Origin: Gemmatimonadota bacterium
Lineage (GTDB): Bacteria; JBHIER01; G020348925
Length of the DNA: 64,000 nt
Direction: 5' to 3'
NCBI GenBank assembly: GCA_020348925.1
Contig: CP070758.1
Location: 3,106,026-3,170,025, forward strand
The notes under the pieces are model-generated. The model worked only from the letters and a program-made list of their open reading frames with translations, ran no database searches and was not told where the DNA came from. Both the position numbers and the translations under genes were made by a program. Below are positions 18,242 through 46,935 of this stretch, in pieces (the first letter of the stretch is position 1; each line of letters starts with the position of its first letter).

Positions 18242-18616
18242 CTATCGAATGACAACCCGTGGCACCAGCCAAATATTGATCACAAAATACACCAAAATTG
18301 TAGCCACAAGACCTCCGGCTACAAACCACATAAATGTTTTCAGACCTTTCAGTTGTTTTTGGAGACCTTGAGTCCGCTCATCGAATTCCCCTTTCAGTTC
18401 ATCGATGGCCCGATTGAGTTCCTCGTGAACGTTGATCCGACCCCGGACGTCCTCAATCTGTCTCTCGATCTCTTCCTTCATTCCGTGAATGTAATCGTTG
18501 ATATTTGCCCCAACGTAAAAGACGACGTCTTTAGGGTTTGCATTATCCCAGCCTCCCTTGCGTATCCGATCCAACGCATCACGAACCTGGGGGCTGTCTT
18601 TGAAATTATTACTCAT
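18242..18616 (-). CDS. Small tail-anchored-like membrane protein, unknown function
   Basis: A 124-residue protein I do not recognise. The first ~95 residues are charged and helical, with a likely coiled coil (EEIERQIEDVRGRINVHEEL, then ELKGEFDERTQGLQKQLKGL). The C terminus is one hydrophobic helix (FMWFVAGGLVATILVYFVIN) with only a few residues after it. It could be inserted in the membrane by its tail and oligomerise. It lies between two large exported-protein genes in the same direction. Coding is supported by the consistent helical heptad pattern and the clean membrane segment. Confidence 0.6.
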   Translation of the reverse strand: MSNNFKDSPQVRDALDRIRKGGWDNANPKDVVFYVGANINDYIHGMKEEIERQIEDVRGRINVHEELNRAIDELKGEFDERTQGLQKQLKGLKTFMWFVAGGLVATILVYFVINIWLVPRVVIR

Positions 18617-18728
18617 TCGAAGAAATCACGAAAACGCAGAGCATCTTCGGTCCGTAAGTTGCGATACGGTGTGCGTTCCTTTTTCAACTCTGCGGAAGAA
18701 CCCCACATTCTGCTACCTTTAGGACTGA

Positions 18729-18764
18729 GCCGGACTGCAGAAACCTTCTCTTCTGCAGTCCGGC
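18729..18764 (-). terminator. Strong hairpin after the 1236-residue gene, no U tract
   Basis: Perfect inverted repeat with 14-base arms (18729-18742 and 18751-18764; GCCGGACTGCAGAA) and an 8-base loop. It lies 39 bases past the 18803 stop. No run of T follows on the minus strand, so it may be a 3'-end protecting structure or a terminator that needs other factors. Confidence 0.65.
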
Positions 18765-18802
18765 ACCAGCTCCATATCTCAAACACTCTCACCCTGAGTG
18801 TT

Positions 18803-22513: not shown

Positions 22514-22734
22514 AATAAAATCCCTCCTTGAATAAGGTGAATAATGTGATACTTTTTCTCTTCGTGATGGTCGCAACCGACTGGCCATGCACTTATCAAT
22601 GGTAAAATTGTTTTCGACCTCTAAAACCTCCAACACATGCTCTTTGAAAAGTATGCAAACCACAAGTGTAGGGTACGAACAACTCTTTTCGATTACCTAA
22701 TGAAACCTCTCAATAAACCTCTCAATGTACCGTG

Positions 22735-22820
22735 AAAGCAGAACTTGTGTCTGATGGAATCATCATGGATGTGATACCTCTGTGATGACGCACCAATGAT
22801 GACGAATCAAGTTCTGCTTT
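22735..22820. repeat. 13-base inverted repeat with a 60-base spacer
   Basis: The arms AAAGCAGAACTTG (22735-22747) and CAAGTTCTGCTTT (22808-22820) are perfect complements. The second arm is followed by TTT on the plus strand, although no plus-strand gene lies upstream. The spacer carries several ATGATG / CATCAT motifs that could form inner pairs. It is upstream of the 1236-residue exported-protein gene. Confidence 0.55.
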
Positions 22821-22885
22821 TTTCTCTACTATCCTTTATCCTTCGGACTCAGGTCTTACGGCACGTCTGTGCCTCTCTCTCATTA

Positions 22886-22926
22886 TTCTCCGGCCAAGGC
22901 TGTTCGCACACGCCCTGGCCGGAGAA
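22886..22926 (-). terminator. Second hairpin after the giant exported-protein gene
   Basis: Inverted repeat with 14-base arms (22886-22899 TTCTCCGGCCAAGG and 22913-22926), one mismatch and a 13-base loop. It has no T run. It lies just past the hairpin at 22951-22984, so the two form a tandem 3'-end structure. Confidence 0.55.
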
Positions 22927-22950
22927 TACGAAAACGTCTTTCTTGAAAGG

Positions 22951-22984
22951 ATAGGCTGTCACCTTTCGCAAGGTAACAGCCTAT
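22951..22984 (-). terminator. Hairpin directly after the giant exported-protein gene
   Basis: Two stacked stems: ATAGGCTGT with ACAGCCTAT (9 pairs), one mismatch, then ACCTT with AAGGT (5 pairs) closed by a four-base loop. It lies 35 bases after the stop at 23019. No clear U tract follows on the minus strand. Confidence 0.65.
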
Positions 22985-23018
22985 GTTGTATCATAACGTT
23001 CCGGCTTCAAGAGCCGTA

Positions 23019-26000: not shown

Positions 26001-29000
26001 GGTGCACGAGTCATCCGGTGCAAAGCCCGAGATGTAGTCACCCTCGAGAGGCGAGCAGATCTCGGGTGGATCGCAGCCCTTGAAGAGCTTGAAGTCGCAG
26101 TACCACGGCTTCATCTGGTTGCAGGCCGTATCGCTGAAGCGGTAGAGCATCATGGTCGCATCGCCCTGCTCCATGCGGTGGTCGTCGAGATCCATGACGC
26201 CGACCCAGGTCTTGTCGTCGGACCCGATCCAGCCGGGCCTCGTCACCTCGACCATGTCGGCCCGGGCCTTGGGATAGTCGTCCTGAGTCACACCGCGGAC
26301 CGTCCAGACCTTGCCGGCGGCGTCCTCGAACTTCACCGAGAAATCCTCCTCGGCCACATCCATGTTATCGTTCCAATGGACGAAGCAATAGACGCGGCTG
26401 GGCATGTTCAGGGTCGTCTGACCGTCGCACTCACCGATGATATCCTGGCCGTACACGTCGTAGGCGAATTCGACCTTCACCGGCATGGGCTTGACGTTAT
26501 CGAGGATCAAATACTCGCCGTAATCCCTCGAATCGACAACCCGGACATTGCCCAGATTGTCGGAGACGAAGATCTTTGCGTACAGGGTATCCTCAGGCAC
26601 ATCGAGCCAGACGCAACCCCAGTCATAAGGATGGAGCTTGTAATAGCAGTCGACACCTTCCCACGGTACGAGAGGATACCAATAATAGTAGTACTCGTTC
26701 ATCTCCAACCATTCCCAGACCCAGTCGGGAACATGCTGCTCAAAGAAGGTGCCCTCCGGTTGCTCGAAAACATCTTTCATGAAGTCCGGCACCCACTCCG
26801 GCCACTCACGTGCAGGGATTTCCATATCAAGATCGTTCCACTTCGTGAGCGCTGATACCAGATAGAAGTTGATATGCGCGTATTGAAAATCCCTTAATAG
26901 ATTATCGTCGACTTGATCCCTGGATTCGGCCTTGACCTCGTCGGTTAGGACTCGATCAAAGAGCCAAAACCAATCGCAGTCAAAACCGACACCGCACTCG
27001 GTATTGTCGACGACGCCCTCGATCCACAGCTGGAAGTTACCGTAATCTTCATCAGTAACCTGATGCGGATTGAGGTTGCACGAGCTGACGTCCTCGTACC
27101 CCTTGACCGTGTGGAGGTTCATGTCAACAATTTCCGGCCCCTCCACATCAAAGATGAAGGTATGGACATCGACGTACGTCGTATCCGGGATGCCGTCGTA
27201 GCAGGCGCATACGTCCCAATCGGTCTCCCCACCATTCACAAGACAATCGCCGTTCTTCTCCGGCGGTATGAGATCTTTGTTGGGCTCGGGCGGACATTCC
27301 TCGCACCACAGATCGAGGAGACTGTCCGGTCCGAAGAGGGCGAAATCGGCCTGGGCCGAGACGCTCACCTCGACCACATCGCAGTGCTGGAAGTGGAGAT
27401 ACTGCGGGTAGAACGGACCGTCAGGCCCCTGCTGCTCTCCCAGATCCCAGACCGTGGGCAGGACCAGCTTGAGGTTGATCCGCTCAGGGGTATAGTGACC
27501 GTCCACGCAGACCCGGTTGTCCCCTTCGTACCAACCCCACAGGTCGCACTCCTCGCAGCCCGGCTGATAATACGCATCGTAGGCCACATGCCACTGATCG
27601 TTCCGCTTCACCCTGACTTTCATCCTGGCCGTGTCGAAGAAGAAGTGGTCGGTGTTCGTGTTGATGGAATGGCCGACCACCGGGCCGTGTATCCGATCTT
27701 GACAACCGCCGCAGGGAGGGAAACACTCAAAAAAGAGCGTGTACCAGTTGGCATATTCGGCCGGAAACATACCCTGACAGAAATGCCACTCCCAGCAATC
27801 GCCATTATCAAGAAGTGTCTCACACGTTTCCCAGGTCCTCAACGAGTAATCGAAAGGATGGTACTCGTCCGACCAGTACCTGTGCGGTTCCATGAAGGGG
27901 AAGCGCTCGATGTCGATCTCGAAGTAGGTCGAGCCGCAGTTGGCCGTTTCCCAACGAGGTACCGGGCACGGCTCGCACAGCTGGCAGCTGATGTTCTTCC
28001 ACTCGACATCGCAGTGGTCGCACCAACCGACTCTGACGCCGATGGTGGTGATGCCCTTGGTGTAAAATTCATTGAAGAAGTAATGGGCGGCCTGACAGTT
28101 GAGATGCGCTCCGAAGAGCTTTATCCAGTTATGCCTCCGACCGCAATTGCCGTCAGGCCAGACGGCATCATAACAATCGAACCACCAGCCCATCTCGTCA
28201 GGATGGTTCCAGTGGATCCTCCTGCTGCCTTCCCAGCCTTCCAGGGTGTCGCGTTTCCCATCGGCCTCAACCTCGAATTGCAACCAGACTCTGTTCTTGT
28301 TCACGCCGCTGAAGAGGCAGTTGAACTCCTGGTTGAACCACTCGGGCCATTCGAGGGGCCAATTCATGAACCACATCAGGGTGTCCATCTCGGCCTGCGG
28401 CACATCGACGATGGCGAAGGAGACGAAGTTGGAATCGAGCTCGCAGCAGTGCTCGTACCAGTGATCCCAGTGCCACACCATCCTGGGGGTGTACTCGTCC
28501 ACGTTGAAATCCCACGTGTACGGTATCTCAGGGATGTTGTAGGGCGCGTCGCAGCAGACCGATTCATCGTAGGGCAGTATCTGGACGCAAATATGGTCGC
28601 CATCGTAGTAGGGCAAGCTGCCGTCATCCAGATAGTCCTCGAGCCACTCCGGAGGATTGAAAATGACGGTGTCCTGATGACCGGCAACTTCGGCCTCGTG
28701 CGTGAAGTTGGCCACATCCATCCAGCCGCCTGTCCCCGGATTATCTCTGTCGAAAGGTGACCCGTGGCCGGGGATCCGTTCGCCCACTGAGTTGAAATGG
28801 AACTTACCACCGTCGATGTCGGTGATCTTGATCTTCATCCAACCGCCGCCGACCCCGCTCCCATAACCGCAATGCGGGGACCCGCTCCCACCGCAGATCT
28901 GATCGTAGATCTGACACATGATGGGCGTGCAGGAGTCGCTGGTGTAGGAATCGTCCGGCGGATAGATCGACGATTCGTCCACATAGGGCGGTTCGGTATC

Positions 29001-30956
29001 GACGCAGAAGCACGGATTGTCCTGCGTGTCGGACTCGAGCCAGGCGCAGTTCTTCTCGAAGCAGTCCTCCTCGCCACAGCAATCATCGTTCTGCTGAGCC
29101 TTGCCTGCCCGAGCGCAGGACCACGAGTTCTCGTCCCACGGCACATTGACCGCATCGCAGGCGTAGACATCGATGCAGACGTGATCGCCGGTCTTGTAGT
29201 AGCAGTCCGGCGGATCGAAGATCAAGTAGGGCGGTTCCCATCTGACGTAGTTGATGGTACTATCAATGATGGTGCCCAGACCAGGGCCTTGAAGCTCACC
29301 GGCGGGGGAGTAATACCTCATATATGGAGGTTGAGAACACCCCTCCACCTCCACCGCAATCATGAGGGAGTCGGGATCGACACCCGCAGGTTCGATTTCG
29401 CAGGCGCAGGCCTGACCAATGTCATCCACGACCTTCCAGCGGACCATCTGCCCTGTGTCACTGGTGTAACACAGCGTGCTGTAGGTGACATCCTTCCAGG
29501 CGACACCGTCGTGGCTGCACTCCATGTCCGCGATCTTGGGCGGTGTGCGGTCCACGGTGAAACTCCAGTGGACGTCCCTGTTCCAAATACCTCCCTGATC
29601 CTTGGCGTGGACGTGGACCGAGACGAGCCAGCCGTCCTTCCATTCTAAATCCGGCGCTCCGTACCCAGGATGCCCCGGAGCGATCTTGACCGAATCGATG
29701 CACTCCTTGCCCAGGAAGACGGTGAATCCTAATTCCAGGTCATCCCTGGCATGCTGTCTGTTGTACCCGGGACTCGCATTCAAGTATTCGCAAGGCCACG
29801 GCGGCCCTGGACAGGCACAAGGTTGATAGACCGGCTCATACCCGTTGAATTGTCCGGTGCCCGTATAGTAGAGCAGCTGATACATCCACAGCGTATCCGG
29901 ATTGCCGTCGCCGTTCACGTCGAGCCACCCGGCTCCCGGACCGGTCCCGAAGGCCTCGGTGCAGGTATCGATGAGGACGTAGGAGGAGCACCAGTCGACG
30001 CACTGGCCGAAATCCCAGGCCCTGAATCGGATCACCTGAAAGAGGTCGCTGGTATAACTGCCGTCCGGAGGACTGATGATCTCAACCTCCGGTCCCTCCT
30101 CAACATCGTATCCGCGAATATACTGGGCCTGGTCGTACCATTCCGGTCCGCTTCGATAGTCGTGATCTTCGGTGAAGTTGATCTCGGTGCGCTCCGTGGT
30201 CGGGTCGTAAAATGCGGATCCGTCAGGACCGTTGATCGTCACGTCCTCCATATCTTGGATGAGGACCGCAAAGGTGTCGTTCGGAGCCAACCCACCCATT
30301 TTGTAACCTCCCTCGACCAGGTGGCATCCTTGACTCCGGACGATCATCCACACCCGGATATGCTCGAGCCGTATCTGGCCCGCATACTCGGTGACCTCAT
30401 CGATCTCAATACCGTACCCTTGAAAATCGAAGAGAGCCTCCCACGTATTCGGGTCAACAAGGTTCCAGGTGTCATCTCCGGTTCCCGGTCCATTAATATC
30501 CGCAATACGAACTTGAATATCCTCGATGGGGATGAACTCGTGAGGATGGGCTCCGTTCTCCAGGTAGAACTGCACGCCGGCTGTCGTGTCCTTCCCTGCA
30601 AGAAGGGGTTTGATGTCCTGATCCGGATCGAAGTTTGCCCCTCGACCAATGAGGGTCACCAACACCGAATCCATGGCCGCACCTTCCTGATCGTGACGAT
30701 AGTCGAACCGGATCACCGGCGTCCGCTTGCTCGAATAGAGCATCGAATCCGGTGTGGCTGGAGTGCAGGCAGTCCTCGTACCCCAAGGATTGGTGATCGA
30801 CCCGAAGGTCGAAGGAATGCAGTCCGGCACATCCGCCGTGTCGGGTTTGACCAAATTCCACACTTCCTCATGGCGCCATTGCGCGTTCGCTGTAGAGCTG
30901 AGCACAATGAGCACCCCCACAATTCCCAGAGTCAATAGTAACCTAAACTTATTCAT
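23019..30956 (-). CDS. Giant exported Cys- and Trp-rich protein with sorting domain
   Basis: Predicted surface protein of 2645 residues. ATG at 30956 has AAAGGAG upstream and opens a signal sequence ending TANAQ; an upstream TTG/ATG run to 31034 is not signal-like. Most of the length is a series of beta-domain segments introduced by PPDGSYTSD, PPKIADMECS, PPYVDESSIYPPDD or DNDPPDVTITNP, resembling Ig-like domains. They are unusually rich in Cys, Trp, Tyr and Asp (for example CACPGPPWPCEY and CCGEEDCFEKNC). Near the C terminus come a paired GWNMV module, one copy of the unnamed module and the sorting domain ending TKRMVLVK. Function is unknown. Abundant Cys suggests disulfides or metal binding outside the cytoplasm. 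Confidence 0.82.
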   Translation of the reverse strand: MNKFRLLLTLGIVGVLIVLSSTANAQWRHEEVWNLVKPDTADVPDCIPSTFGSITNPWGTRTACTPATPDSMLYSSKRTPVIRFDYRHDQEGAAMDSVLVTLIGRGANFDPDQDIKPLLAGKDTTAGVQFYLENGAHPHEFIPIEDIQVRIADINGPGTGDDTWNLVDPNTWEALFDFQGYGIEIDEVTEYAGQIRLEHIRVWMIVRSQGCHLVEGGYKMGGLAPNDTFAVLIQDMEDVTINGPDGSAFYDPTTERTEINFTEDHDYRSGPEWYDQAQYIRGYDVEEGPEVEIISPPDGSYTSDLFQVIRFRAWDFGQCVDWCSSYVLIDTCTEAFGTGPGAGWLDVNGDGNPDTLWMYQLLYYTGTGQFNGYEPVYQPCACPGPPWPCEYLNASPGYNRQHARDDLELGFTVFLGKECIDSVKIAPGHPGYGAPDLEWKDGWLVSVHVHAKDQGGIWNRDVHWSFTVDRTPPKIADMECSHDGVAWKDVTYSTLCYTSDTGQMVRWKVVDDIGQACACEIEPAGVDPDSLMIAVEVEGCSQPPYMRYYSPAGELQGPGLGTIIDSTINYVRWEPPYLIFDPPDCYYKTGDHVCIDVYACDAVNVPWDENSWSCARAGKAQQNDDCCGEEDCFEKNCAWLESDTQDNPCFCVDTEPPYVDESSIYPPDDSYTSDSCTPIMCQIYDQICGGSGSPHCGYGSGVGGGWMKIKITDIDGGKFHFNSVGERIPGHGSPFDRDNPGTGGWMDVANFTHEAEVAGHQDTVIFNPPEWLEDYLDDGSLPYYDGDHICVQILPYDESVCCDAPYNIPEIPYTWDFNVDEYTPRMVWHWDHWYEHCCELDSNFVSFAIVDVPQAEMDTLMWFMNWPLEWPEWFNQEFNCLFSGVNKNRVWLQFEVEADGKRDTLEGWEGSRRIHWNHPDEMGWWFDCYDAVWPDGNCGRRHNWIKLFGAHLNCQAAHYFFNEFYTKGITTIGVRVGWCDHCDVEWKNISCQLCEPCPVPRWETANCGSTYFEIDIERFPFMEPHRYWSDEYHPFDYSLRTWETCETLLDNGDCWEWHFCQGMFPAEYANWYTLFFECFPPCGGCQDRIHGPVVGHSINTNTDHFFFDTARMKVRVKRNDQWHVAYDAYYQPGCEECDLWGWYEGDNRVCVDGHYTPERINLKLVLPTVWDLGEQQGPDGPFYPQYLHFQHCDVVEVSVSAQADFALFGPDSLLDLWCEECPPEPNKDLIPPEKNGDCLVNGGETDWDVCACYDGIPDTTYVDVHTFIFDVEGPEIVDMNLHTVKGYEDVSSCNLNPHQVTDEDYGNFQLWIEGVVDNTECGVGFDCDWFWLFDRVLTDEVKAESRDQVDDNLLRDFQYAHINFYLVSALTKWNDLDMEIPAREWPEWVPDFMKDVFEQPEGTFFEQHVPDWVWEWLEMNEYYYYWYPLVPWEGVDCYYKLHPYDWGCVWLDVPEDTLYAKIFVSDNLGNVRVVDSRDYGEYLILDNVKPMPVKVEFAYDVYGQDIIGECDGQTTLNMPSRVYCFVHWNDNMDVAEEDFSVKFEDAAGKVWTVRGVTQDDYPKARADMVEVTRPGWIGSDDKTWVGVMDLDDHRMEQGDATMMLYRFSDTACNQMKPWYCDFKLFKGCDPPEICSPLEGDYISGFAPDDSCTNNQHYALLCAYFSHPELLSDVTWQFHDGVAWNDITATEYGEIDDCTCYSWSTLDAAAFGQVATIDLRVISDCGPLDTDTSLVEIDIVVDNDPPDVTITNPVQDQVVTADYLALTFEVTNEVCLADTEWHYSLDDGETWYEVDNPHHWMPENTLAEYLLRLRVTDCAGLVGCEDVTFFWRAILVGFERGGRAMDLPDAFVNAIETDWPGLWGLDDPMGDIYWIPITTYTYDPDCDLYWTPCTVRGRLYPGDNLFVTYRVGTGTPVDSILTHIPAKGTSNFPRNPIYRDGGPNSGTWVVLTNYNGFDYYGYNWVVYDETAPNDGLWIVNSEIYVDGTEFPDVAYIILDSEDPIYHITYEFEADGGPLPMIEHPIYGMIPVTTRQLVDVHIEVDQTVKPELPGDGRLWCWMDIFVYAPGELVDIDGVPACGDELVPCGLGETFDRWMNRPPMEDTTDYHYTWNVTNANQTSEGVADVFVKERDTAGNLVDIEEAEGAGNTGLHILIDVTAPGAPDETKITICDNGQATGDPSAVGTEWYPDLNALRVTIYSGSMLTDVLVEFDANNDGSFSATIGAALTAGDVVYVTATDHAGNESASTAVTVITCEEPFAYNMSAGWNMVSVPVVPDDATLTTLFPDAVASWKYNGGYQTAEEAAEGEGYWLLYGAADLEEITGLPIRTFQKDLTAGWNLVGSCFEDVAISTIVDVSTGMFPTWISPMNIWAWGGSGYLPTGTIKAGGSVWMLAEESGTIEVAVVDASVARVPVVTEEMIEPTWMSRITVQSDSEVKTLEFGAEELATSAYDRRIDRPAPPDVPSTDFVAHFTSDFGIVSNFWRDVRGLEDNSWRLNVDAESALTITWDVLAVPQDMAARLRIDGVEVDMRSQNSISLAKGPHDLDIVVRTVPKTFELAQNYPNPFNPETNITYGLPEDGTVVMKVYNVLGQEIRTLVNEQQSAGYYTVIWDGTNDNGEMVSTGVYIYSIMAGRYVDTKRMVLVK

Positions 30957-31810
30957 TGGCTCACTCCTTTTAAGAGTTAGACGTTTTTGGTGCTTCCAAC
31001 TTATTGGACTCGTCTTTTCGTCCATACGCTCCATCCTCCTTTCGGTTTTAATGGTTTGAATGATATGAAGAAATATACCAATAGAAATAAGTACGTTCGT
31101 TCCTCCCCCCTTTCGTAATGTAAATGTTATTAAGTGATTTCATTCGTAAACACATATGATACTTTAAAAATACTTAAAACCCACCCTTCCCCCTGGTACC
31201 CAAGTCCCAAAAGACGCTACACGATATGGATGGTGACTCTGTTCAATCCTTATGTCAAGTTTAACATATACGAAGCCCCTTGTCAAGTCTTTTTTTACAG
31301 TTTTCACAACTTTTAGTAATCCAGGTTGACGCCTTAAGTATTCGCTTTCAACTGTCGGAGAAAATGTAAGATATAACATCACACATGTCAAGCATTTTTT
31401 ACATATTCTCCTTCGCCCGAACAGCCTTAAAAATCGTTGTAATATATCAGACAAACCCCTCATTTGTCAAGCTTTTTTTTTAAAAAAAATGAAAAAAATT
31501 CAATGCCTTAGGAATTAAAAAATGATTCTTTGCTCCAGCGTATTGATTTTCAAGCACTTATTGAATCCCGCGGAATATCCGCTTTTACGCAATATATTGG
31601 GTTTGTACCTGGAACAAACGCCTAAATATGGTATATTGTGCTTGACTTTTCGTTTATGAGCGGACAGAATCGAAGGCGGAGTTCTCCGAGAGAAAAAGTG
31701 TTCTCCGTCCATGAAACAGGGCCGGCAAAACAGCTCCGGTGATGCGAAATTTTTGTCAGGGTGAATCCCGCTCTCGTCGTGGCGTCTCTTCGAGGTCTCT
31801 GTTCTCCCGG
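30957..31810. other. AT-rich intergenic region upstream of the giant gene
   Basis: About 850 bases without a credible gene, much more AT-rich than its flanks. It contains the ribosome binding site of the giant gene, four TTGACA boxes on the minus strand (described separately), homopolymer T/A runs at 31471-31500 and a short GCGGA-ata-TCCGC hairpin followed by TTTT on the plus strand near 31570-31586. No clear terminator for the epimerase gene ending at 31811 was found. Confidence 0.6.
31230..31470 (-). promoter_or_regulatory. Tandem sigma70-like promoter boxes for the giant gene
   Basis: Four perfect TTGACA boxes on the minus strand at 31465-31470, 31386-31391, 31281-31286 and 31253-31258. 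Matching -10 boxes are TATATT (31441-31446, spacer 18), TACATT (31363-31368, spacer 17) and TAAACT (31258-31263, spacer 17); the last box has only CACCAT. The first two are convincing. All point toward the gene starting at 30956, giving a leader of 300-480 bases. Confidence 0.6.
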
Positions 31811-35840: not shown

Positions 35841-35997
35841 TCCGAGGCGAAAGAGAGGATTCAGGATACTCAACCTGTACCATGCTCTCGAATGAACGAA
35901 AGGCGTCGACGAAGGGGACAAACGCGGAGACTCCTTTGAAATGTGTACGGCATCGTTCGAAAAGGGTCATCCCGTTCGTGCTGGCGACGTCACTCAT
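35815..35997 (-). CDS. Possible 60-residue ORF coupled to V-ATPase subunit D
   Basis: The ATG overlaps the subunit D stop as ATGA and is preceded by GGAGG, which is typical of translational coupling. The product of 60 residues (MSDVASTNGMTLFERC ...) has no motif I recognise, no membrane segment and one Cys. Its stop overlaps the possible start codons of the UDP-sugar dehydrogenase. It could be a real small protein, or a leader that carries ribosomes to the next gene, or chance. Confidence 0.3.
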   Translation of the reverse strand: MSDVASTNGMTLFERCRTHFKGVSAFVPFVDAFRSFESMVQVEYPESSLSPRNASHEYGN

Positions 35998-36614
35998 CGT
36001 TCCTCCGCCATCTCTTTGATTTTCATCAATCGTGTCAGGTTGGATCGCTCCAGCTCCTCCAATTTCATCGTAATAAACCGGATGGTCTCCTTGAGACTGG
36101 GAATCAGGGTGTACTCGAGAGCGTTGACCCGACGCCGCGTCCTGTCGATCTCATCGGCCAACAGCATGATCGTCTTCTCAGTCTGAGCCAGCTCGAGAAG
36201 CCGGAGGAGAACGGCGTCCAGGGAGCGGAGAGAAACATCGAGCTCGCCGGAGGTATTCGCGAAACCGTAACAGTAAATCCTGCCCTCGGCCCTGGGCTCG
36301 AACAGCGGCACTTCGACGTTCATAATACGCTGGGTCGTCACTCCAACATCGAGTCGCTTTCCCGGCAGGGCCAGGGCCTCCTCCACCGATGCCCGCGACA
36401 TGACCGACCGAGCCATCGTAAACCGTTCGAAAGCCCGGTGCAAGTCCCGCTCCACCTCCTGTCGCAGGCCTTGAATCTGTTTCACAAGATCCATAAACCG
36501 TCGCATCAACTCGTCCTGTTTGTCCTTGAGCAACTTATGCCCCCGGATGGCGAGCTTCAGCCGCTTCTTCAACCTCAGAAGATGCATGCGTGTTGGATTC
36601 GCCGCTAAGAGCAT
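35994..36614 (-). CDS. atpD: V-type ATPase subunit D (central stalk)
   Basis: Rotor shaft of the V-type ATPase, turned inside the A3B3 headpiece. The start MLLAANPTRMHLLRLKKRL is characteristic (normally NPTRMELLRLKKRL), followed by long N- and C-terminal helices, with EIDRTRRRVNALEYTLIP as the strongly conserved C-terminal block. The length of 206 is normal. It follows subunit B by about 60 bases and closes the ATPase operon. Gene symbol follows archaeal-type V-ATPase naming. Confidence 0.94.
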   Translation of the reverse strand: MLLAANPTRMHLLRLKKRLKLAIRGHKLLKDKQDELMRRFMDLVKQIQGLRQEVERDLHRAFERFTMARSVMSRASVEEALALPGKRLDVGVTTQRIMNVEVPLFEPRAEGRIYCYGFANTSGELDVSLRSLDAVLLRLLELAQTEKTIMLLADEIDRTRRRVNALEYTLIPSLKETIRFITMKLEELERSNLTRLMKIKEMAEER

Positions 36615-36673: not shown

Positions 36674-38099
36674 TCATGAGGAGGAGATCCCAGATTCTGC
36701 AACCGCTTCGACCTTCTCACCCTTCCGAAATCGAGGCAGATATTTTTCGATCCACTCCGGTCTGATCCTCTTCAACTCCACTGTGGGAAAGACCGACAGG
36801 AGTTGCCAGCCCAAATCGAGCGTCTCCTCGATCGTCCGGTCCTCATATTCTCCTTGCGAGACGTATCCGGCCTCGAATTTGTCGGCGAAATTGAAAAACA
36901 TTCGATCCGCCTCGCTCAGAGCCGCCTCCCCCAGGATGACGGCCAGTTCCTGAGCCTCCTTCCCCCGGGCGTATGCGGCGAAGAGCTGGTTGAAGATATC
37001 GGAGTGATCCTCCCTGGTTTTGCCCTCCCCGATTCCTTTATCTTTGAGACGGGAGAGCGAGGGGAGGACATCAATGGGAGGTGACACACCTTTTTTGTGC
37101 AAGGCTCTTGAAAGAATGACCTGACCCTCGGTGATATAGCCGGTGAGATCCGGAATGGGGTGGGTCTTGTCGTCCTCCGGCATGGTCAGAATAGGAATGA
37201 GCGTTAATCGAGCCCCGTTTCCCCTTGATGCGGCCCGCTCTCTCGTAGAGTGAAGCCAAATCCGTGTAGAGATAGCCCGGATAGCCTCGGCGCCCGGGCA
37301 CCTCCTTTCGAGCGGCGGAGACCTCCCGCAGGGCTTCGCAGTAATTGGTCATATCGGTTAAAATAACGAGAACGTGCATATCCTTTTCAAAAGCCAAATA
37401 TTCGGCTGCGGTGAAGGCCATGCGGGGTGTCGCGATCCGTTCGATTGCGGGATCGTCGGCCAGATTCAGGAACAGAACCGCTCTTTCGATGGCCCCGGTC
37501 TGGCGAAAATCGGAGGTGAAAAAATCGGCCTCCTCGAAGGTGATGCCCATGGCGGAAAAGACGACGGCGAAGACCTCCTCCTTGCCCAATACCTTGGCCT
37601 GTCGAGCGATCTGGGCGGCCAAACGATTGTGGGGCAATCCGAAGCCCGAGAAGATGGGCAGCTTTTGGCCCCGGACGCACGTATTCAGCCCATCGATGGC
37701 CGAGATGCCTGTCTGAATAAACTCCGAAGGATACTCCCGGGCGTAGGGGTTGATGGGATTGCCGTTGATGTCCACCCGCTTCTCCGGCAGAATATCCGGC
37801 CCCTTGTCGATGGGGCGGCCCAACCCGTCAAAGACGCGACCCAACATGTCCTCCGAGACCCCCAGTTCGATCCCCTTGCCCAGAAAGGTGACACGACTCT
37901 GAAAGACATCCACCCCCGTCGCTTCCTCGAAAAGCTGGACCAGGGCTTTATCCCCATCCACCTCAAGAACTTTTCCCCGCCGTCGCTCCCCGTTGGGCAG
38001 TTGCAGTTCCACCAGCTCCTCATACTTCACACCCTCCACCTCCTCCACCAAAACCAGAGGACCGGCAATCTCACGAATAGTCAGGTACTCTTTCAGCAT
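36674..38099 (-). CDS. atpB: V-type ATPase subunit B, interrupted by a one-base frameshift
   Basis: Non-catalytic nucleotide-binding subunit of the headpiece. The N-terminal part (from ATG 38099, AGGAG at eight bases) runs [17 protein letters not shown] to [20 protein letters not shown] and is normal through about residue 298. One extra T on the plus strand at 37204-37205 then breaks the frame inside the conserved [15 protein letters not shown] block. Removing one base restores a continuous 474-residue protein through [11 protein letters not shown] to the end at 36674. Both halves are well conserved, so a sequencing or assembly error is more likely than a dead gene, because the complex needs this subunit. 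Confidence 0.88.
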
Positions 38100-38127
38100 A
38101 TGCACTTCTCCTGCATCATTTCTTGCG

Positions 38128-40398
38128 CTACTTGATCAAAACACCCTTTTTCGTATGCATCTCTTGACCGGCTCTGAGAACGTAATAATAAACGCCACTG
38201 GGTACTTCGTTTCCGTCGCAATCCCTTCCGTCCCAGGTGACAGTGTAAAAACCGGGTTCCTTCGATTCATCCACAAGCGTCCTCAACTCCTGGCCCAAAA
38301 TATTCAATACTTTCAAGGTCGTGCGGACGGCATATCCCCTGCCCCTTATCCGATATTCGATATCTGTCTGAGGATTGAAAGGATTCGGGTAATTTTGAAG
38401 GAGAGCCGTCTCCTCTGGAAGCGTTGTCCCCTCATCGAAGAGAACAGCCGTGGGTCCAAAAACCGTTACCAAGATCGTGTCTCTATCGCTGGCCAGACTG
38501 TCGTCCGTCACGGTGAAGATGATTTCGGCTATTCCCTCAAAATCAGGAGCCCGAATTATAGATTGCGCTCCTTCTATCTCAACCGATACTGCTTCGACCA
38601 AAGTCAGGGCAGACCATGTCAGCGCCGATTCCGGGGTATCGACATCTTCCACATAATCATTGAGATCGAGGACGACCGAATCCCCGGAGACGAAGCTCGT
38701 ATCCGGCAGAGGAAGAATAATCGGCGGGTCGTTCACGGCAAGAACAGTGACACGCACCCCGAGACTGTCCGACAGCAGACCGTCCGAGGCAATGACGACA
38801 AAGCCCGTATCCGCCGTGCCCTCAACAGGCGTCCCGGCGATCACGGAATCGGACGGGGTCAGCCAGCCGGGATAATCTGAAAAGAAGAACGTGACGGAAT
38901 CGCCGTTCGGATCCGTCGCCTTTCCTATATATGAAAAGGGTTCATCCTCAACGGCCGTGACCGCGGAGTCAGAGACTATTTCAGGCGGGACATTGGCTGA
39001 CACAACCGTCACAAGCACGGTGTCCCTATCGCTGGCCAGACTATCGTCCGTTACGGTGAAAAAAACCTCGGCCGTCCCTTCAAAATCTGGCGCGGTCAGA
39101 ACGGCCTGACCCTCTCCAATCGTGACGATCACCGCCTCCGTCGACGTCAGGGCAGACCACGTCAGTGCCCATTCCGGCGTGTCGACGTCCTCGACATGGC
39201 CGCCGAGATCGAGAACGACCGAATCCCCGGAGACGAAGCTCGTATCCGGCAGAGGAAGAATAATCGGCGGGTCGTTCACGGCCTTAACGGTCACATTGAC
39301 TACAAGACTGTCGGAGAGCAAACCGTCAGTGGCCGTCACGAGGAAGCTTGTATCCAGTGTCCCTTCACCCGGCGTGCCCATAATTGTCGAATCGGAAGGG
39401 GACAGCCACATCGGATAATGGGCGAAGGAGTAAGACACAGGATTGTTATCTGGGTCAGTGGCCCGGGCGATATACGAAAAGAGCCGATCCTCGAAAGCGG
39501 TCGCTGTTGCGGCGGAACTTATCTCCGGGGGTCTGTTCGAAATGGCGTTGGTCCGATACAACCGACGCACCCGGCTGGCCACGGTAAAACCTGGATTCGT
39601 CTCACCGGGACGACTTGTGACCGCCGCCACTGGACCTACATTCTCAGCGTTCCAATCGTACGTAATCACCGTTTGTGTTGAATCCAATACAGACACGAAA
39701 TTAATCCCAGAAAACGCGGACACATCCAAGCGAGTGACCTCATGCCGTCTGACTCGGAGCACTTGGTACTGACCCTGCGGAACGATCATTGTGCCCCACG
39801 CATCCACCTCACCCCGGCTCACAAATCCTATCTCAACTTTCGCATCAAGATACGGATCGGAAGAGAATATCGGATATAAAGGATTTTCGACTATATCCTC
39901 AAAAATGTTCGAATAGAACGTCGAATCGGACCACGACGCCCCATATTCCAGGGGAAGCGGCAGTGACATCAGTGACGAATCCAGGACAATGGACAGAGGC
40001 ACGCCGAAAATATTTTCGCTGGCCGCCCCCAGAAGAGCCATTTCTCCTTCCTCGAGCCTCCAGTACATGTACCCCGCCGCCGTATCGATGCCGGCGATGT
40101 TGATGCCATCCGTATCATAGACCACATTGGCCTCGGGAAACTCCCCGCCGAAGGGTGTCTCCCCCTTGGCGACAATCGCCTCAGCCTCTGAATCGGTCGT
40201 CGGTCCCTGGCTGAAGTCCCACACCCGCGGACCCCCGCTCTCGCCCACATCGACCGGCACACTTCTCCCTCTCTCCACATAATATTCGTTGACGATGCCG
40301 GGGTCGGAGGGAATCTCATGTCTTGTCAGAACAATCTGGGCCTGACTCGAAGACCCCGCCCAGAGCAAGGCCAGGCATAGAACACAGGTGCCTTTCAT
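38128..40398 (-). CDS. Exported protein with cadherin/He_PIG-like repeats and sorting domain, inside the V-ATPase operon
   Basis: Predicted surface protein of 756 residues. ATG at 40398 lies one base after the subunit A stop and opens a signal sequence ([20 protein letters not shown]). The first ~270 residues are unlike anything I recognise. Two near-identical units of about 181 residues follow, each with an Ig-like domain ([32 protein letters not shown]) and a [17 protein letters not shown] ... VEDVDTPE segment, resembling He_PIG and cadherin-like modules. The C terminus is the sorting domain ([16 protein letters not shown] ... [13 protein letters not shown]). It ends 28 bases before subunit B, so it is truly embedded in the ATPase operon. 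The unnamed module of the 15883-30956 block is absent. Confidence 0.84.
38672..39282. repeat. 68-base perfect direct repeat inside the embedded exported-protein gene
   Basis: Bases 38672-38739 are identical to 39215-39282. The offset is 543 bases (181 codons), so the duplication keeps frame and coincides with the protein repeat unit. Flanking sequence is similar but diverged, which suggests either recent gene conversion between the two units or selection on this stretch. Confidence 0.85.
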
Positions 40399-40399
40399 A

Positions 40400-42154
40400 C
40401 TATTTTTTCCCAATGGAAGCCAAAGTTTCATCGACGTCCGTAAATATCTCATCAATTTTTACCAGCTCCTTCTCCGGCGTATATCTGGCCCTGGCGATCT
40501 TCTCCCGCAACGGCAGCTCCGAAAGTTGGTCAACCGTTGCCCCTCTCTCCAGGGCCTCCTTGGACCTCTCGTGCATATTCAAAATGAGTTTCAACATCTT
40601 ATATTGCTTATCCACCGAGGCATACGTGTCCACTTCGTGAAAGGCGTTCTGATGGAGAAAATCCTCCCGCAGCGACCGCGAGGTCTCCAGAATGAGCCGG
40701 TCGTCCTGAGATAGGGCATCGACACCGACGAGCCGGACGATCTCCTCGAGCTCTGCCTCCTGCTGCAAAAGTTTCAAGGCCTCGGACCGCATCTCGATGA
40801 AGTCCGACCCCACCTCCTTGACATAGTAATCATCGATGTTCTCATAATAAAGGGAATAGCTGTTGAGCCACGAGATGGCGGGAAAATGTCTCCGGAAGGC
40901 CAAAATGTCCTCCAGACTCCAGAACACCTTCACCACCCTCAGGGTAGCCTGGACCACAGGGTCGGAAAGATCTCCGCCGGGCGGCGAAACGGCTCCGACA
41001 ATCGTCAACGCTCCCTCCCTGTTGTCGCTGCCGTGGCAGGTGACGCGCCCAGCCCGTTCGTAAAACTCGGCCACCCGCCTCCCCAGATAGGCCGGATAAC
41101 CCTCCTCACCCGGCATCTCCTCCAACCGGCCCGAGATCTCGCGCATCGCTTCCGCCCATCGCGAGGTGGAATCGGCCATGACGGCCACCGAATACCCCAT
41201 GTCCCGGAAATACTCGGCAATCGTGATGCCGGTGTAGACGGACGCCTCCCGGGCCGCCACGGGCATGTTGGACGTGTTGGCCACGAGCACCGTCCGTTTC
41301 ATGAGCGGCTCGCCGGTGCGCGGATCCTCCAGCTCCGGGAACTCCAGAAGCACGTTGGCCATTTCGTTCCCCCGTTCACCGCACCCGATGTAGACGATAA
41401 TGTCCGCATCGGCCCATTTCGCCAGGAGGTGTTGGATCACCGTCTTGCCACTGCCAAAGGGACCGGGTACGCAGGCGGTTCCGCCTTTCCCTATCGGAAA
41501 GAAAGTGTCGAAAACCCGCTGCCCGGTGATTAAGGGCACGTATGGAACCAGTTTTTCCTGATACGGCCTCGCCTTTCTGACAGGCCATCTCTGCAGCATC
41601 GTCACCTCTTTGATGCCTTCGGCCGTCTCTATGGTAACCACCCTTTCCTCTATAGTGAATTCACCTTGGCGGATGTCCTTGACCCGACCCTCCAGACCGT
41701 AGGGTACCATGATTTTATGAACGCACGTGCTCGTCTCGTTGACGATACCCAGGACGTCGCCTGAGACCACAGCATCTCCAGCCTGAACCTGCGGCTGGAA
41801 CAGCCATTTCTTCTCACGATCCAAACCGGGCACATCAATACCACGAGTAATGTAATCGCCCACAGCGTCGCGGATGACGTTGAGGGGCCGCTGGATCCCG
41901 TCGTAAATCGACTCCATGAGACCGGGCCCCAACTCCACTGAGAGGGGCATCCCGGTTGAGAAAACCGGCTCACCCGGACCCAACCCCCCGGTCTCCTCAT
42001 AGACCTGAATGGAGGCCCGATCGCCCTTCAACTCGATCACCTCCCCGATGAGTTTCTTCTCGCTGACGCGAACCACGTCGTACATCCTGGCCTCATCCAT
42101 CCCCTCGGCCACAACCAGCGGACCTGAAACCTTGACGATAGTGCCCTGTTTCAT
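40400..42154 (-). CDS. atpA: V-type ATPase subunit A (catalytic)
   Basis: Catalytic subunit of the V-type ATPase, 584 residues. The start [17 protein letters not shown] is typical. The subunit A-specific non-homologous insertion precedes the P-loop GPFGSGKTV, then [19 protein letters not shown] with the catalytic Glu, and [39 protein letters not shown]. The length and all motifs are intact, so the enzyme should be active. It is one base from the following exported-protein gene and 109 bases after subunit F. Confidence 0.96.
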
Positions 42155-42263: not shown

Positions 42264-42590
42264 TCATTCGTCCTCCTGCATGATGTCGGCACCCACCGCC
42301 TTCCTGACAACATGCCGCAGTGTTTCGAGACCGTAACCGAGGCTTCCGCGATTATTCGGAATGAGGACGATACTGGGGAGCGGCCTCCAGGCTGCCTCCC
42401 GCAACCGCTCTTCGATATGAATTGCAGACTGCTCGGTAATAAAAATCACCGCATACCCCCCCTCGTAGACCTGATCAAAAGCGGCTTTCACGTCGTCGGC
42501 CTTTTCAGCGGGATAGACATCAACGCCTACGGCGTGAAAACAGAAGATCGAATCCCGATCACCAATGACGGCTATATTAGAGGTAGACAT
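42264..42590 (-). CDS. atpF: V-type ATPase subunit F
   Basis: Small central-stalk subunit that helps regulate ATP hydrolysis. ATG at 42590 opens MSTSNIAVIGDRDSIFCFHA, the normal family start, giving 108 residues. The middle holds GYAVIFITEQSA and the end IVLIPNNRGSLGYGLETLRH. Codons upstream to 42671 overlap subunit C and are not conserved. It overlaps the subunit C stop by 14 bases, which suggests translational coupling. Confidence 0.9.
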   Translation of the reverse strand: MSTSNIAVIGDRDSIFCFHAVGVDVYPAEKADDVKAAFDQVYEGGYAVIFITEQSAIHIEERLREAAWRPLPSIVLIPNNRGSLGYGLETLRHVVRKAVGADIMQEDE

Positions 42591-43626
42591 CCGGTAATCG
42601 CTCCTGTATCGATTCAGGCGGGAGATGATTCCACTTACAGGTGAAGATGGTCCGAATTGCCTTAATTTCATACTCTTTGATCAGCACATAGGCCATCAAA
42701 GGCTCAAGACCGAAGGTGGTCAGGCGGGCACGCCCTAAATAGGTGATGAGAAAACCATCGCACAGCTGCTCCAGACGGGCAAATGACCCTTTTGTCTGAA
42801 GGGAGGCGATCCCCTCGTCGAGGAGTCTCGCATATCGCGTCTGTCCAAAACGCTGCGGCAGCCCATCGAGCGGCTCCTCCTGAAGCATTCGATAGAACTC
42901 CACCGCCAACGATCCCCCGTCGCACAGGTTTGTCTTCAACAGTTCAGGGGCCTGCTGACTCCACAGCAGTCGCACAAATGTTTTGATGTTGAGCAGATCG
43001 ATCTCCCGTTCCAGCCAGCCCCAGAGAAACATCATGCCCACCTTCATCACGACCGAGAGAAAATGGGAGAACATCGCCTTGTCCACAAGGACGTCCAGGC
43101 TCTGGGGTTCGATTTCATCGGAAGGAGAGAACCCCTCGATGGTCTGGATGGTCTGTCTCAGGTATCCGGGAAGATGGCCGACATCTTCGTCACGGATCGC
43201 TCGTAACAGGACAGCGGGCGGAACCTGACCCGAGGGCGAGAGGAAAAATTCCATATCTCGGCCGGAGATGCTGCCCTTCAGGAGAATTTTCAAATTGTAA
43301 TAGTCGGAGCGCATTTTCAAAAGATCCGTCACCTCAGGGTTCTTGGAAAGATGGACAATAAGGTTCAGTGTCGAGGCCATATGTCCACTGAGAAAATCCT
43401 CAAAGTGATCCGGATCGCTCAGGGATGGTACGGTCTCCCCGTAATCTGTCTCCCCCAGGATGCGAAGGAATGCATCCGTATCCTCGGCTCCCACGAGACG
43501 AGAGATATCGTGTCGCCGGAGAAGTCGTGTTTCCAAAGCCCGAATACGTCCGACTCCGTAAGCATAGTGAGTATTATATGTAAATGGCAATCGATATTCT
43601 GAAAGTTGTTTCACGCGAAACTCCAA
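42577..43626 (-). CDS. atpC: V-type ATPase subunit C (d-type)
   Basis: Socket subunit that links the central stalk to the membrane ring. The 349 residues begin with a short extra segment and then YAYGVGRIRALETRLL, which is typical, and continue with KMRSDYYNLKILLKG and the conserved C-terminal LMAYVLIKEYEIKAIRTI. A possible parS site overlaps its first codons. It follows subunit E by about 50 bases. Confidence 0.9.
   Translation of the reverse strand: MEFRVKQLSEYRLPFTYNTHYAYGVGRIRALETRLLRRHDISRLVGAEDTDAFLRILGETDYGETVPSLSDPDHFEDFLSGHMASTLNLIVHLSKNPEVTDLLKMRSDYYNLKILLKGSISGRDMEFFLSPSGQVPPAVLLRAIRDEDVGHLPGYLRQTIQTIEGFSPSDEIEPQSLDVLVDKAMFSHFLSVVMKVGMMFLWGWLEREIDLLNIKTFVRLLWSQQAPELLKTNLCDGGSLAVEFYRMLQEEPLDGLPQRFGQTRYARLLDEGIASLQTKGSFARLEQLCDGFLITYLGRARLTTFGLEPLMAYVLIKEYEIKAIRTIFTCKWNHLPPESIQERLPDVYL
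43607..43622. promoter_or_regulatory. Candidate parS centromere site within subunit C
   Basis: TGTTTCACGCGAAACT matches the chromosomal parS consensus TGTTTCACGTGAAACA at 14 of 16 positions; the two differences are at positions 10 and 16. It lies inside the second to seventh codons of the subunit C gene. parA-parB are about 6 kb away, and parS sites usually cluster near them. The match is the only evidence. Confidence 0.45.
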
Positions 43627-43677: not shown

Positions 43678-44286
43678 TCAGGAGGCCCTTTCTCCCCACA
43701 GGATGTTGGCCACCTCAAATTCCATCGCTTCCCGCATGGATTCGACAATGAGCTTGAGATCGCAATTGATCTCCTTCCTGCCCTTGCGGAGTACGAAGCC
43801 CCCGGCCATCTCCCGCGTTTCCCCCGAGAGAGCCAACGCCCCCTTACGATTTTGAGCTGAAAGCTGTCGATTCACATCCGAAAGCAGTCCACTCCAATCG
43901 ATCCCTTTATCGTGCGAAGCCAAGATGACCTCCTCATCACCCTCTTCCACGCTCTGCAGGAAGAGTTTCTTCATAAGCGCCGAGTACTTTTCGGCATTCA
44001 GCTCGGCGAGCGATGCGAACGCCTTTCGAAAGGATTCGTCAATGAGGTTCTGTTTCTCCGCCAGAAGCTCTTTTCTCATTTCAGCCTGTGCTCTGGAGAC
44101 GATCCTCCTTTTCTGTTGTTCCGCCTCCTTCGCGGCCTCCTCTCGAGCTTTCCCTTCAATCTCAGTGACCGTCTTGGCCGTGTCGGCCTTTACCGTTTCA
44201 ATTTCGTTGTCGGCTTTGGCCAGAATTTCTTTGGCCTCGGCTTCGGCATCCTCCATGATCTTTTTGGTTATCCGATCTATGGCCAT
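43678..44286 (-). CDS. atpE: V-type ATPase subunit E (peripheral stalk)
   Basis: Peripheral stalk subunit that pairs with the H subunit to hold the headpiece against rotation. The 202 residues show a long helical charged N-terminal half (ITKKIMEDAEAEAKEILAKA) and a globular C-terminal domain with GGFVLRKGRKEINCDLKL, as in the archaeal and bacterial E family. It starts 6 bases after subunit K. Confidence 0.9.
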   Translation of the reverse strand: MAIDRITKKIMEDAEAEAKEILAKADNEIETVKADTAKTVTEIEGKAREEAAKEAEQQKRRIVSRAQAEMRKELLAEKQNLIDESFRKAFASLAELNAEKYSALMKKLFLQSVEEGDEEVILASHDKGIDWSGLLSDVNRQLSAQNRKGALALSGETREMAGGFVLRKGRKEINCDLKLIVESMREAMEFEVANILWGERAS

Positions 44287-44292
44287 GTCGGT

Positions 44293-44868
44293 CTACCCCC
44301 GAATCCTGGTCAACAGAATGATGGACATGAGAAAACCGAGAACAGCGTAGAACTCGACAAAGACGCCGAGGACGAGCGCCTTGCCCACCTCATTCGGTTT
44401 CTTCGCCGTCATTTCGACGCCAGCGGCGCAGACCCTGCCCTGATGAATGGCCGACAGGAACCCGGCCAGGGCAACGGGTATACTGCTGAAGAAAAACTGC
44501 CACCCCTCCTGGATGGTCAGCGTGGCTGTTTCTCCGCCGAAAATGCCGCTCCAGAGCATGACCAAAAAACCGATCACAAAGCCGTATATCCCTTGAGTCC
44601 CAGGTAAGGCCGTGAGCATAAGGTATCTGGCAAAATTGGCCGTGTCTTCACTCATGGCGCCCAGGCTGGTCTGTCCGGCATATCCGATCCCTATGGCCGA
44701 TCCAATTCCGGCCAAACCAACAGCAACGGCCGCACCAGCGATACAGAGTGCGACCGGACCCAGCAGAGCCCAGCTCGAACCTGTCATCTGCTGAGCAGAG
44801 GACACCGAAGCCCAGAGGGTCACGGCGAAGAATACGACGACGAACACAAACAGGGTTCTCTTTGTCAT
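44293..44868 (-). CDS. atpK: V-type ATPase subunit K (membrane ring proteolipid)
   Basis: Membrane rotor ring subunit, 191 residues, with two hairpins. ATG at 44868 has AAGGAG at six bases and is followed by a signal-like hydrophobic segment (residues about 5-22, ending VSSAQ). The first hairpin has LPGTQGIYG and the second has HQGRVCAAGV and VEFYAVLGF. These match the Enterococcus hirae NtpK sodium ligands L61, T64, Q65, Q110 and E139 in order and spacing, so sodium rather than proton transport is predicted. The codons upstream to 44904 lie in a repeat of the leader and are not used. Confidence 0.92.
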   Translation of the reverse strand: MTKRTLFVFVVVFFAVTLWASVSSAQQMTGSSWALLGPVALCIAGAAVAVGLAGIGSAIGIGYAGQTSLGAMSEDTANFARYLMLTALPGTQGIYGFVIGFLVMLWSGIFGGETATLTIQEGWQFFFSSIPVALAGFLSAIHQGRVCAAGVEMTAKKPNEVGKALVLGVFVEFYAVLGFLMSIILLTRIRG

Positions 44869-44952
44869 AGTGTACTCCTTCTGCTTGCTTGGGATGAGAG
44901 TCATCGTGTGCTCCTTCTGCTTGCTGTGTACGAAAGTACTCGTGTGCTCATA

Positions 44953-46935
44953 TTATTCCCTTACAATGATGGTGTGTTGATTCTTCTCCTGAAACGGCTC
45001 AAATGGTTTTCCCCCTCCCTCATAAAACTTCGAAAAGAATTCGACAAAGTGCAGTCTGGCGGTATGGACAAAGGCCCCCAGACAGGTTATGACGAGATAG
45101 ACGAGGTGGGCGACGACGACCATCACGGCCGTGATGAGAATTCCGACATAGGGAATCTTTAATGCCATGCCTCCCAGGATGTCGATGACACCAGCAACCA
45201 CAGCCGTGGCCAAACCCAAGGCCAACAAACGCGAATAGCTCAGGATATCCCCGAAAACACCGATGATGCCGTACAGTCCTCCCAACCCCTTGCCGACATG
45301 CACCAAGAGATTCTTACTGCCCAATCCCTGAAAGAGAAATATCCCCCCCGCACCGCACAACAGCAGGAACGTGCCCGCCTTCACCACGGGCGAGGGCAGT
45401 GTTATAATAAATCCGATCATCGAGAGGCCCAAACCGACTGTGGCCATGAGCCAGGGAACATGAATGAGAATTGAACGAACAGCGTTCCCCGACGCGATCC
45501 CCCCGTAGAGTTTCACCACATACCCGACAAAGACATGGACCACGCCACAGCCCAATGCCAAGGCAAAAAAAGTCATAGCATTCTCAAGGGGATCAAACAC
45601 CTTCAAGCTGTAAGCAGTGATCACAAAGGGATGATTTGGATCCATTGTGGTCAGATCGAGCCCAAAATATCCTCCGGTGACAATTCCCGCCACAATCGTC
45701 AGGAGTCCGCTCGCCAGGAGCAGTTGAAAAAGTTTTCTCATCCCGGGCCCGGGTCGCAGCTTCCTCAGCGCCAGGAGCGAAATAAGGGAGAGCATGAGTC
45801 CGTAGCCGGCGTCAGTCACACACAGTGCGAAGAACACGGCAAAGAATGGGGACAGAACAGGTGTCGGGTCTATCTCGGTGTATTTCGGCCTTCCGTAGAG
45901 ATCGGTAACCATTTCGAAAGGCTTCGCCCATTCCCTGTTTTCCAACGCAACCGGAGGAACGTCCTCTGCCCGTCCCTCCGTTTCCAGGACGCTCACAGTT
46001 TGAAATTTCGCCTCGAGATCCGCGCGCACTCTGTCGACATCTTTTCTCTTCATCCACCCTTCAATCAGACACGCACTGTCCGTAAAAGCCAGACGCTCTC
46101 GCACCGTTTCTCTCTCCAGATCATTCATCACATGATCCATAACAATCAGAAGTCGCGGCCGGTTTTCCGCCAACCGACGCCCCCTCTCATCAATCCGTTT
46201 GTTCTCCTCATGCAGGGCGGAGATCTCCTCCTGAATGTCCTGCACCGCCTCCCTGGGCGTCCCGCTGAATCCGGAGAGCGAGACCTCGGTGATGTCGAAG
46301 CGTTTCAGGTGCTCAGTGACCGCCTCTTCCATCTCCTTGAGGAACAGGAGAGCGAAGTACGTCTGTGTTTGATCTTGGTGAACCGTTTCACAGTGAACGG
46401 TCTCTGCCATATCCTGGATCATCTCCGTATAATCGGAAGTGAGCATGGTACAGAAGCGGAGACCGACCCTCTCCGTTGAAGTCAGCTCGTCGAGGGGCAC
46501 TCCAATGGATGTCCACGGATTCAGGAATGCCTTTCTGGACCGGAGTTTCTCCAGACGAGACCTGAGTTCAGCCGCCTGTCGGGAGAGGTCCACGCATTCG
46601 CCAACGAGTCCGTCAAAGTCGAACTCTTGGGTAACCCAGTAGTAATCCTGGGGTGTAATTTCAACTTTTTCTCCACCCAATTTTGACAGGACGCCCTGTT
46701 GCGGCATATACGGTTTTAAAAACTCCGCTGCCGTCTGCACCGCCGCAAGTCTCTCGGACAACCCCTGCGGGAACTCACGTGTGTGCGGGATAAATTGTGC
46801 CGATTCCGGCTCGGGGTGATTCTCTTTGAAATGGCTTATTTCCAAAAGACCGAGGGCCTGCATCTCCTTGATCAGAGCGGAGCGCTCCGAGAGATGGCAT
46901 ACAATGGAAACCTTTGACATGGGGACAACGGCCAT
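44953..46935 (-). CDS. atpI: V-type ATPase subunit I (stator, a-type)
   Basis: Membrane stator subunit carrying the ion half-channels, 660 residues. The N-terminal ~330 residues are cytoplasmic and helical with MSKVSIVCHLSERSALI at the start. The C-terminal part has about eight membrane helices, including FFALCVTDAGYGL and the helix GDILSYSRLLALGLAT, which holds the essential Arg facing the ring. The first ATG overlaps the H subunit stop (TAATG); ATG at 46920 is an alternative that fits the family start better. Confidence 0.93.
   Translation of the reverse strand: MAVVPMSKVSIVCHLSERSALIKEMQALGLLEISHFKENHPEPESAQFIPHTREFPQGLSERLAAVQTAAEFLKPYMPQQGVLSKLGGEKVEITPQDYYWVTQEFDFDGLVGECVDLSRQAAELRSRLEKLRSRKAFLNPWTSIGVPLDELTSTERVGLRFCTMLTSDYTEMIQDMAETVHCETVHQDQTQTYFALLFLKEMEEAVTEHLKRFDITEVSLSGFSGTPREAVQDIQEEISALHEENKRIDERGRRLAENRPRLLIVMDHVMNDLERETVRERLAFTDSACLIEGWMKRKDVDRVRADLEAKFQTVSVLETEGRAEDVPPVALENREWAKPFEMVTDLYGRPKYTEIDPTPVLSPFFAVFFALCVTDAGYGLMLSLISLLALRKLRPGPGMRKLFQLLLASGLLTIVAGIVTGGYFGLDLTTMDPNHPFVITAYSLKVFDPLENAMTFFALALGCGVVHVFVGYVVKLYGGIASGNAVRSILIHVPWLMATVGLGLSMIGFIITLPSPVVKAGTFLLLCGAGGIFLFQGLGSKNLLVHVGKGLGGLYGIIGVFGDILSYSRLLALGLATAVVAGVIDILGGMALKIPYVGILITAVMVVVAHLVYLVITCLGAFVHTARLHFVEFFSKFYEGGGKPFEPFQEKNQHTIIVRE

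What the first reader, a model, noticed from the sequence alone, without database searches (positions are those of the whole stretch)
38128..40398. Sorting-domain protein embedded between V-ATPase subunits A and B
The gene starts one base after the subunit A stop and ends 28 bases before subunit B, so it is co-transcribed with the ATPase. The A and B genes are normally adjacent, and an exported protein between catalytic subunits is unusual. It may be a chance insertion, or a surface protein whose expression is tied to ion energetics.
Basis: seen in the sequence. Interest (0 to 1): 0.7.

Follow-up and report, generated by a model that had tools for sequence, protein, structure and literature searches.

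The report
Stray surface-protein gene inside ATPase operon
A gene for an exported surface protein really does sit tightly between the two main genes of a rotary ion pump, but comparison with about 120 other operons points to one of several unrelated genes that have landed at this junction rather than to a new part or regulator of the pump.

Summary
On the minus strand, an intact 756-residue ORF (38128-40398) starts 1 nt after the stop of V-ATPase subunit A and ends 28 nt before the ATG of subunit B, inside an otherwise canonical I-K-E-C-F-A-B-D operon. The 64-kb window has no N runs, although the rest of this "single contig" is full of 100-N scaffold joins, so a scaffold misjoin is excluded. 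The protein has a signal peptide, a widespread exported N-domain, a duplicated cadherin/Ig unit and a C-terminal type IX (T9SS) sorting domain. The genome carries at least 150 such tails plus SprA and C25 proteases. Relatives of the N-domain occur in 13 other genomes, never beside a V-ATPase. A and B are directly adjacent in 117 of 124 other operons. In the other 7 the junction holds unrelated cargo (TnpB, AbiEii/HicAB, TPR proteins, GuaA-type), and it is the most often interrupted junction (p about 0.004, uncorrected for phylogeny). The best-matching complete relative (A 76%) lacks the insertion. Best reading: lineage-specific insertion of a T9SS cargo gene, probably co-transcribed, with no demonstrated link to ion energetics.

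The parts
38128..40398 (-). Exported T9SS-type cargo gene X, 756 aa, between V-ATPase A and B
   Evidence: ORF and translation; domains
40339..40398 (-). Predicted signal peptide of X, residues 1-20 ([20 protein letters not shown], then QIVL)
   Evidence: sequence inspection; relatives share the AQI start after their hydrophobic leader
39535..40338 (-). N-terminal exported domain of X (no Pfam family), 46% identical to one stand-alone paralog
38446..39534 (-). Two tandem cadherin/Big_9-type units, a 543-nt internal duplication (76-78% DNA identity)
38128..38445 (-). C-terminal FlgD-Ig-like T9SS type A sorting domain
   Evidence: FlgD_ig; TIGR04183 23.3 bits vs cut-off 23; at least 150 copies in the genome
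40400..42154 (-). V-ATPase subunit A (584 aa), intact
37071..38099 (-). V-ATPase subunit B, first reading frame; leaves the conserved frame after KRGSI and stops at 37071
36674..37183 (-). V-ATPase subunit B, remainder in a second frame
35994..36614 (-). V-ATPase subunit D
42264..42590 (-). V-ATPase subunit F
   Evidence: position between C and A; matches the F position in relatives by tblastn
42577..43626 (-). V-ATPase subunit C
43678..44286 (-). V-ATPase subunit E
44293..44904 (-). V-ATPase rotor subunit K; motifs LPGTQG, HQG and VEFY align with the sodium-type K ring 2bl2
44953..46935 (-). V-ATPase subunit I
38555..38582 (-). Promoter-like site inside X, upstream of B (11 of 12 consensus bases); consensus match only

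Best explanation
A gene of the genome's large T9SS cargo family came to lie in the A/B junction of the V-ATPase operon in this lineage, leaving both ATPase gene ends and the ribosome-binding site of B intact. It is probably read from the operon transcript, translated from its own weak start signal, exported by Sec and then placed on the surface by the type IX system. It has no mechanistic role in the ATPase. Shown: gene position, intact ends, domain content, T9SS component genes in the genome, adjacency of A and B in most relatives, unrelated inserts at the same junction in other lineages. Inferred: co-transcription, export, absence of a functional tie.
For: A-B adjacent in 117 of 124 operons; A-B is the junction most often interrupted (7/124 against 7/599 for all other junctions pooled, Fisher p 0.004; 6/45 against 6/197 in the set fetched around this genome, p 0.011). 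The inserts differ by lineage: TnpB-like gene (L093); GNAT, GuaA-type and DUF6998 proteins (L169); AbiEii, RAMA-domain, NYN and HicAB proteins (L171); Y1 transposase (L288); TPR proteins (L258, L263). The best-matching complete relative, G136 (A 76%, B 84.6%), has only 73 nt there. X belongs to a family with at least 150 tails in the genome, with SprA and C25 proteases present. N-domain relatives lie on contigs other than those holding the V-ATPase in every genome that has both. The closest paralog stands alone. Codon usage of X resembles that of its neighbours. X has a weaker predicted Shine-Dalgarno pairing (-4.2) than A (-9.6), B (-7.4) or D (-6.1).
Against: In 39 sampled cargo genes of this genome none was found wedged between two conserved housekeeping genes, so this placement is unusual for its family. 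A different T9SS cargo protein sits between F and A in two species of another genus (L171, L288), which could hint at a preference, although a rough estimate of cargo share among inserted genes gives about 1.3 expected against 2 seen (P about 0.36). No congener of this genome was available, so conservation of A-X-B could not be tested directly.
Confidence: 0.77

Rival explanations
1. X is functionally tied to the V-ATPase: its synthesis is coupled to that of the pump so that surface display follows ion energetics.
For: 1-nt spacing after the A stop allows translational coupling; a second, different T9SS cargo gene lies between F and A in genus g4, orthologous in two species (56% identity), and its N-domain shows a weak profile match to that of X (hhalign E 1e-4, probability 56%, 64 columns).
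Against: N-domain relatives in 13 other genomes are never V-ATPase-linked; the g4 N-domain has no match in G000 at E 0.01; nothing in X resembles an ATPase subunit; most V-ATPase operons lack any such gene.
Confidence: 0.08
2. The V-ATPase operon is decaying: the genome also has an F-type ATPase, B is frameshifted, and X landed in a dispensable locus.
For: B frame break; F-type alpha, gamma and beta confirmed, a, b and delta by sequence.
Against: All other subunits are intact; both parts of B keep 82-85% identity to an intact relative; the break is a single net shift and could be a base-level assembly error.
Confidence: 0.1
3. The arrangement is an assembly chimera.
For: The genome is a scaffold with many 100-N joins, and its F-ATPase beta gene is split over two distant places.
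Against: No N in the window; all gene ends intact; no repeat longer than 21 nt at the junctions in about 0.6 Mb compared; codon usage consistent.
Confidence: 0.05

Closest known systems
T9SS type A cargo proteins (TIGR04183 / Por_Secre_tail / FlgD_ig tails)
   Same: Signal peptide, modular exported domains, C-terminal sorting domain; SprA and C25 proteases in the genome
   Different: Gene sits inside a V-ATPase operon instead of alone or among other cargo genes
Bacterial V/A-type ATPase operon I-K-E-C-F-A-B-D (clostridial/enterococcal ntp type)
   Same: Same subunits, same order, sodium-type K motifs
   Different: An unrelated exported gene between A and B; B out of frame in this assembly
Interrupted V-ATPase clusters, e.g. 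Candidatus Kuenenia stuttgartiensis with an unknown ORF between B and D (PMC2936114)
   Same: An extra ORF embedded in a V-ATPase cluster
   Different: Other junction, other gene

Membership tests
T9SS type A cargo protein | N-terminal Sec signal peptide | tested here: met
   Hydrophobic leader ending SSSQA before QIVL, by inspection and a simple script; no dedicated predictor available
T9SS type A cargo protein | C-terminal sorting domain over the curated cut-off | tested here: met
   TIGR04183 23.3 vs 23 bits (marginal); FlgD_ig 37.3 vs 27; CHU_C 26.2 vs 27, below; at least 150 homologous tails in the genome
T9SS type A cargo protein | T9SS machinery encoded in the same genome | tested here: met
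   SprA_N 153 bits; 14 C25 peptidase matches; other components not searched
T9SS type A cargo protein | Actually exported and surface-attached | not testable with these tools
   needs proteomics
V-ATPase subunit or dedicated accessory protein | Homology to a known subunit | tested here: not met
   no such match in Pfam or NCBIfam
V-ATPase subunit or dedicated accessory protein | Conserved presence in V-ATPase operons of relatives | tested here: not met
   absent from the operons examined; N-domain relatives elsewhere in their genomes
Mobile genetic element | Terminal repeats or transposase | tested here: not met
   no inverted repeats and only internal direct repeats in 37900-40700; no transposase ORF in the insert

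The most novel reading that the evidence does not exclude
Placement after A is selected: translation of a surface protein is coupled to V-ATPase synthesis, so that a surface layer follows the cell's sodium or proton budget. The same would apply to the different T9SS cargo gene found between F and A in another genus.
Probability: 0.07. Interest if true: 0.6.

Novelty: new member of a known kind. Interest (0 to 1): 0.25.

Why it matters
It shows that even the tight A-B pair, whose products assemble as A3B3, tolerates an unrelated gene between them. In this survey that junction is the one most often opened. Gene-neighbour arguments should therefore not assign V-ATPase functions to such inserts.

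Tried and rejected
AlphaFold of the N-domain without an alignment gave pLDDT 34 and was not used. A second fold request failed on a wrong frame. Solved structures and Pfam gave no family for the N-domain. A first profile comparison of the N-domain with the g4 cargo N-domain was negative. A later one gave probability 97.8%, but driven by the shared sorting domain; with the tails trimmed it is only weak. No phage family match. Phylum search found only this genome. No paper on A/B-junction insertions was found in the searches made. The idea that the B break is a programmed frameshift was considered: no slippery heptamer in the proper frame was seen by eye, so it was set aside.

Full report
What is there. 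The window lies at G000:C1:3106026-3170025 of a 5.04-Mb genome that is alone in its phylum in the held set. On the minus strand runs a V-ATPase operon I-K-E-C-F-A-X-B-D. X (38128-40398, 756 aa) begins 1 nt after the stop of A and ends 28 nt before the ATG of B. B has a good Shine-Dalgarno site in those 28 nt; X has a weaker one inside the end of A.

Is it an artefact? The genome, listed as one contig, is really a scaffold: 33 runs of exactly 100 N in 441 kb of fetched stretches. Its F-type beta gene is split between about 94 kb and about 1.04 Mb, each part ending at an N run and sharing a near-identical stretch. The 64-kb window has no N at all, all gene ends at both junctions are intact, and no exact match longer than 16-21 nt to about 0.6 Mb of other own-genome sequence lies at the junctions. 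A misjoin is therefore unlikely, though raw reads were not available.

What X is. It has a signal peptide, an N-domain of about 270 residues without a Pfam family, two tandem cadherin/Big_9 units that are an internal 543-nt duplication, and a C-terminal T9SS type A sorting domain (TIGR04183 at its cut-off, FlgD_ig above it). The genome has at least 150 such tails, SprA and C25 proteases. The N-domain occurs once more in this genome, in a stand-alone gene with the same kind of tail, and in 13 of 385 other genomes searched. The full-length aligned examples have the architecture leader + N-domain + sorting tail. Where such a genome also has a close V-ATPase A gene, the two are on different contigs.

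How unusual is the position? In 124 other operons A and B are within 600 nt in 117. The seven exceptions carry unrelated genes: a TnpB-like gene in Caldicoprobacter (named from the sequence, no profile search), six genes including a GNAT protein and a GuaA-type protein, AbiEii, RAMA-domain, NYN and HicAB proteins, a related endonuclease-like protein with a Y1 transposase, TPR proteins and a small membrane protein. Pooled, A-B is interrupted more often than the other junctions (7/124 against 7/599; p 0.004). The operons are not phylogenetically independent: two pairs share a family or genus, so p is optimistic. Counting this genome, at least six lineages are involved. K-E, E-C and C-F were never interrupted. 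The best-matching complete relative (A 76%) has A and B 73 nt apart.

Is there a link to T9SS? In two species of another genus a different T9SS cargo protein lies between F and A. Its N-domain is at best weakly related to that of X. The genomes concerned carry 48 to 150 sorting tails each. Assuming about one gene per kb, a cargo gene among roughly 30 inserted genes is expected about 1.3 times by chance, against 2 seen (a rough estimate). In this genome, 39 sampled cargo genes gave no other case wedged between housekeeping genes, so the placement is unusual for its family while ordinary for the junction.

Mechanism. Most likely a lineage-specific insertion by ordinary recombination, kept because both neighbours retained their start and stop signals. 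X is presumably on the operon transcript and made at a lower rate, exported by Sec and the type IX system. A promoter-like site inside X upstream of B (38555-38582, 11 of 12 consensus bases) could give B and D independent transcription; this is a consensus match only.

Subunit B. In this assembly B leaves its frame after KRGSI and the remainder lies in another frame. Both parts keep 82-85% identity to an intact relative, so the break is either recent or a base-level error. Intact copies exist in relatives. This bears on whether the operon works at all and needs reads.

Verdict. Chance insertion is favoured; a tie to ion energetics is not supported.

Noticed in passing
window 36674-38099: V-ATPase subunit B is split over two reading frames in this assembly; relatives have it intact.
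   Followed up: partly
L167:5400-6560 and L168:7000-9020: F-ATPase beta gene split over two places about 0.95 Mb apart, each part bounded by exactly 100 N; the single-contig genome is a scaffold with many 100-N joins.
   Followed up: partly
L171:9963-10889 (-) and L288:2643-3572 (+): A different T9SS cargo gene sits between V-ATPase F and A in two species of another genus.
   Followed up: yes
L171, L288, L169, L256, L258, L263, L093: The V-ATPase A/B junction is interrupted by unrelated genes (toxin-antitoxin pairs, TPR proteins, TnpB, GuaA-type) in several lineages; F-A and B-D less often, K-E, E-C and C-F never.
   Followed up: partly
window 44293-44904: Subunit K carries the LPGTQG, HQG and VEFY motifs aligned with the E. 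hirae sodium-type K ring (2bl2), and has an extra signal-like N-terminus.
   Followed up: partly
window 40336-40398 and sample: Gln follows the predicted signal peptide in 8 of 29 cargo proteins with a crude predictor, and in X and most of its aligned N-domain relatives; the 'Q-rule' was described as Bacteroidetes-specific (PMC5837995).
   Followed up: partly
window 15883-31034: Three large T9SS cargo genes in a row (740, 1286 and 2671 aa), and another at 55943-59896.
   Followed up: no
L195:3519-6025 and L204:1869-7461: Adjacent ORFs that look like one exported protein broken by a frameshift, so frame breaks may not be rare in this assembly.
   Followed up: no
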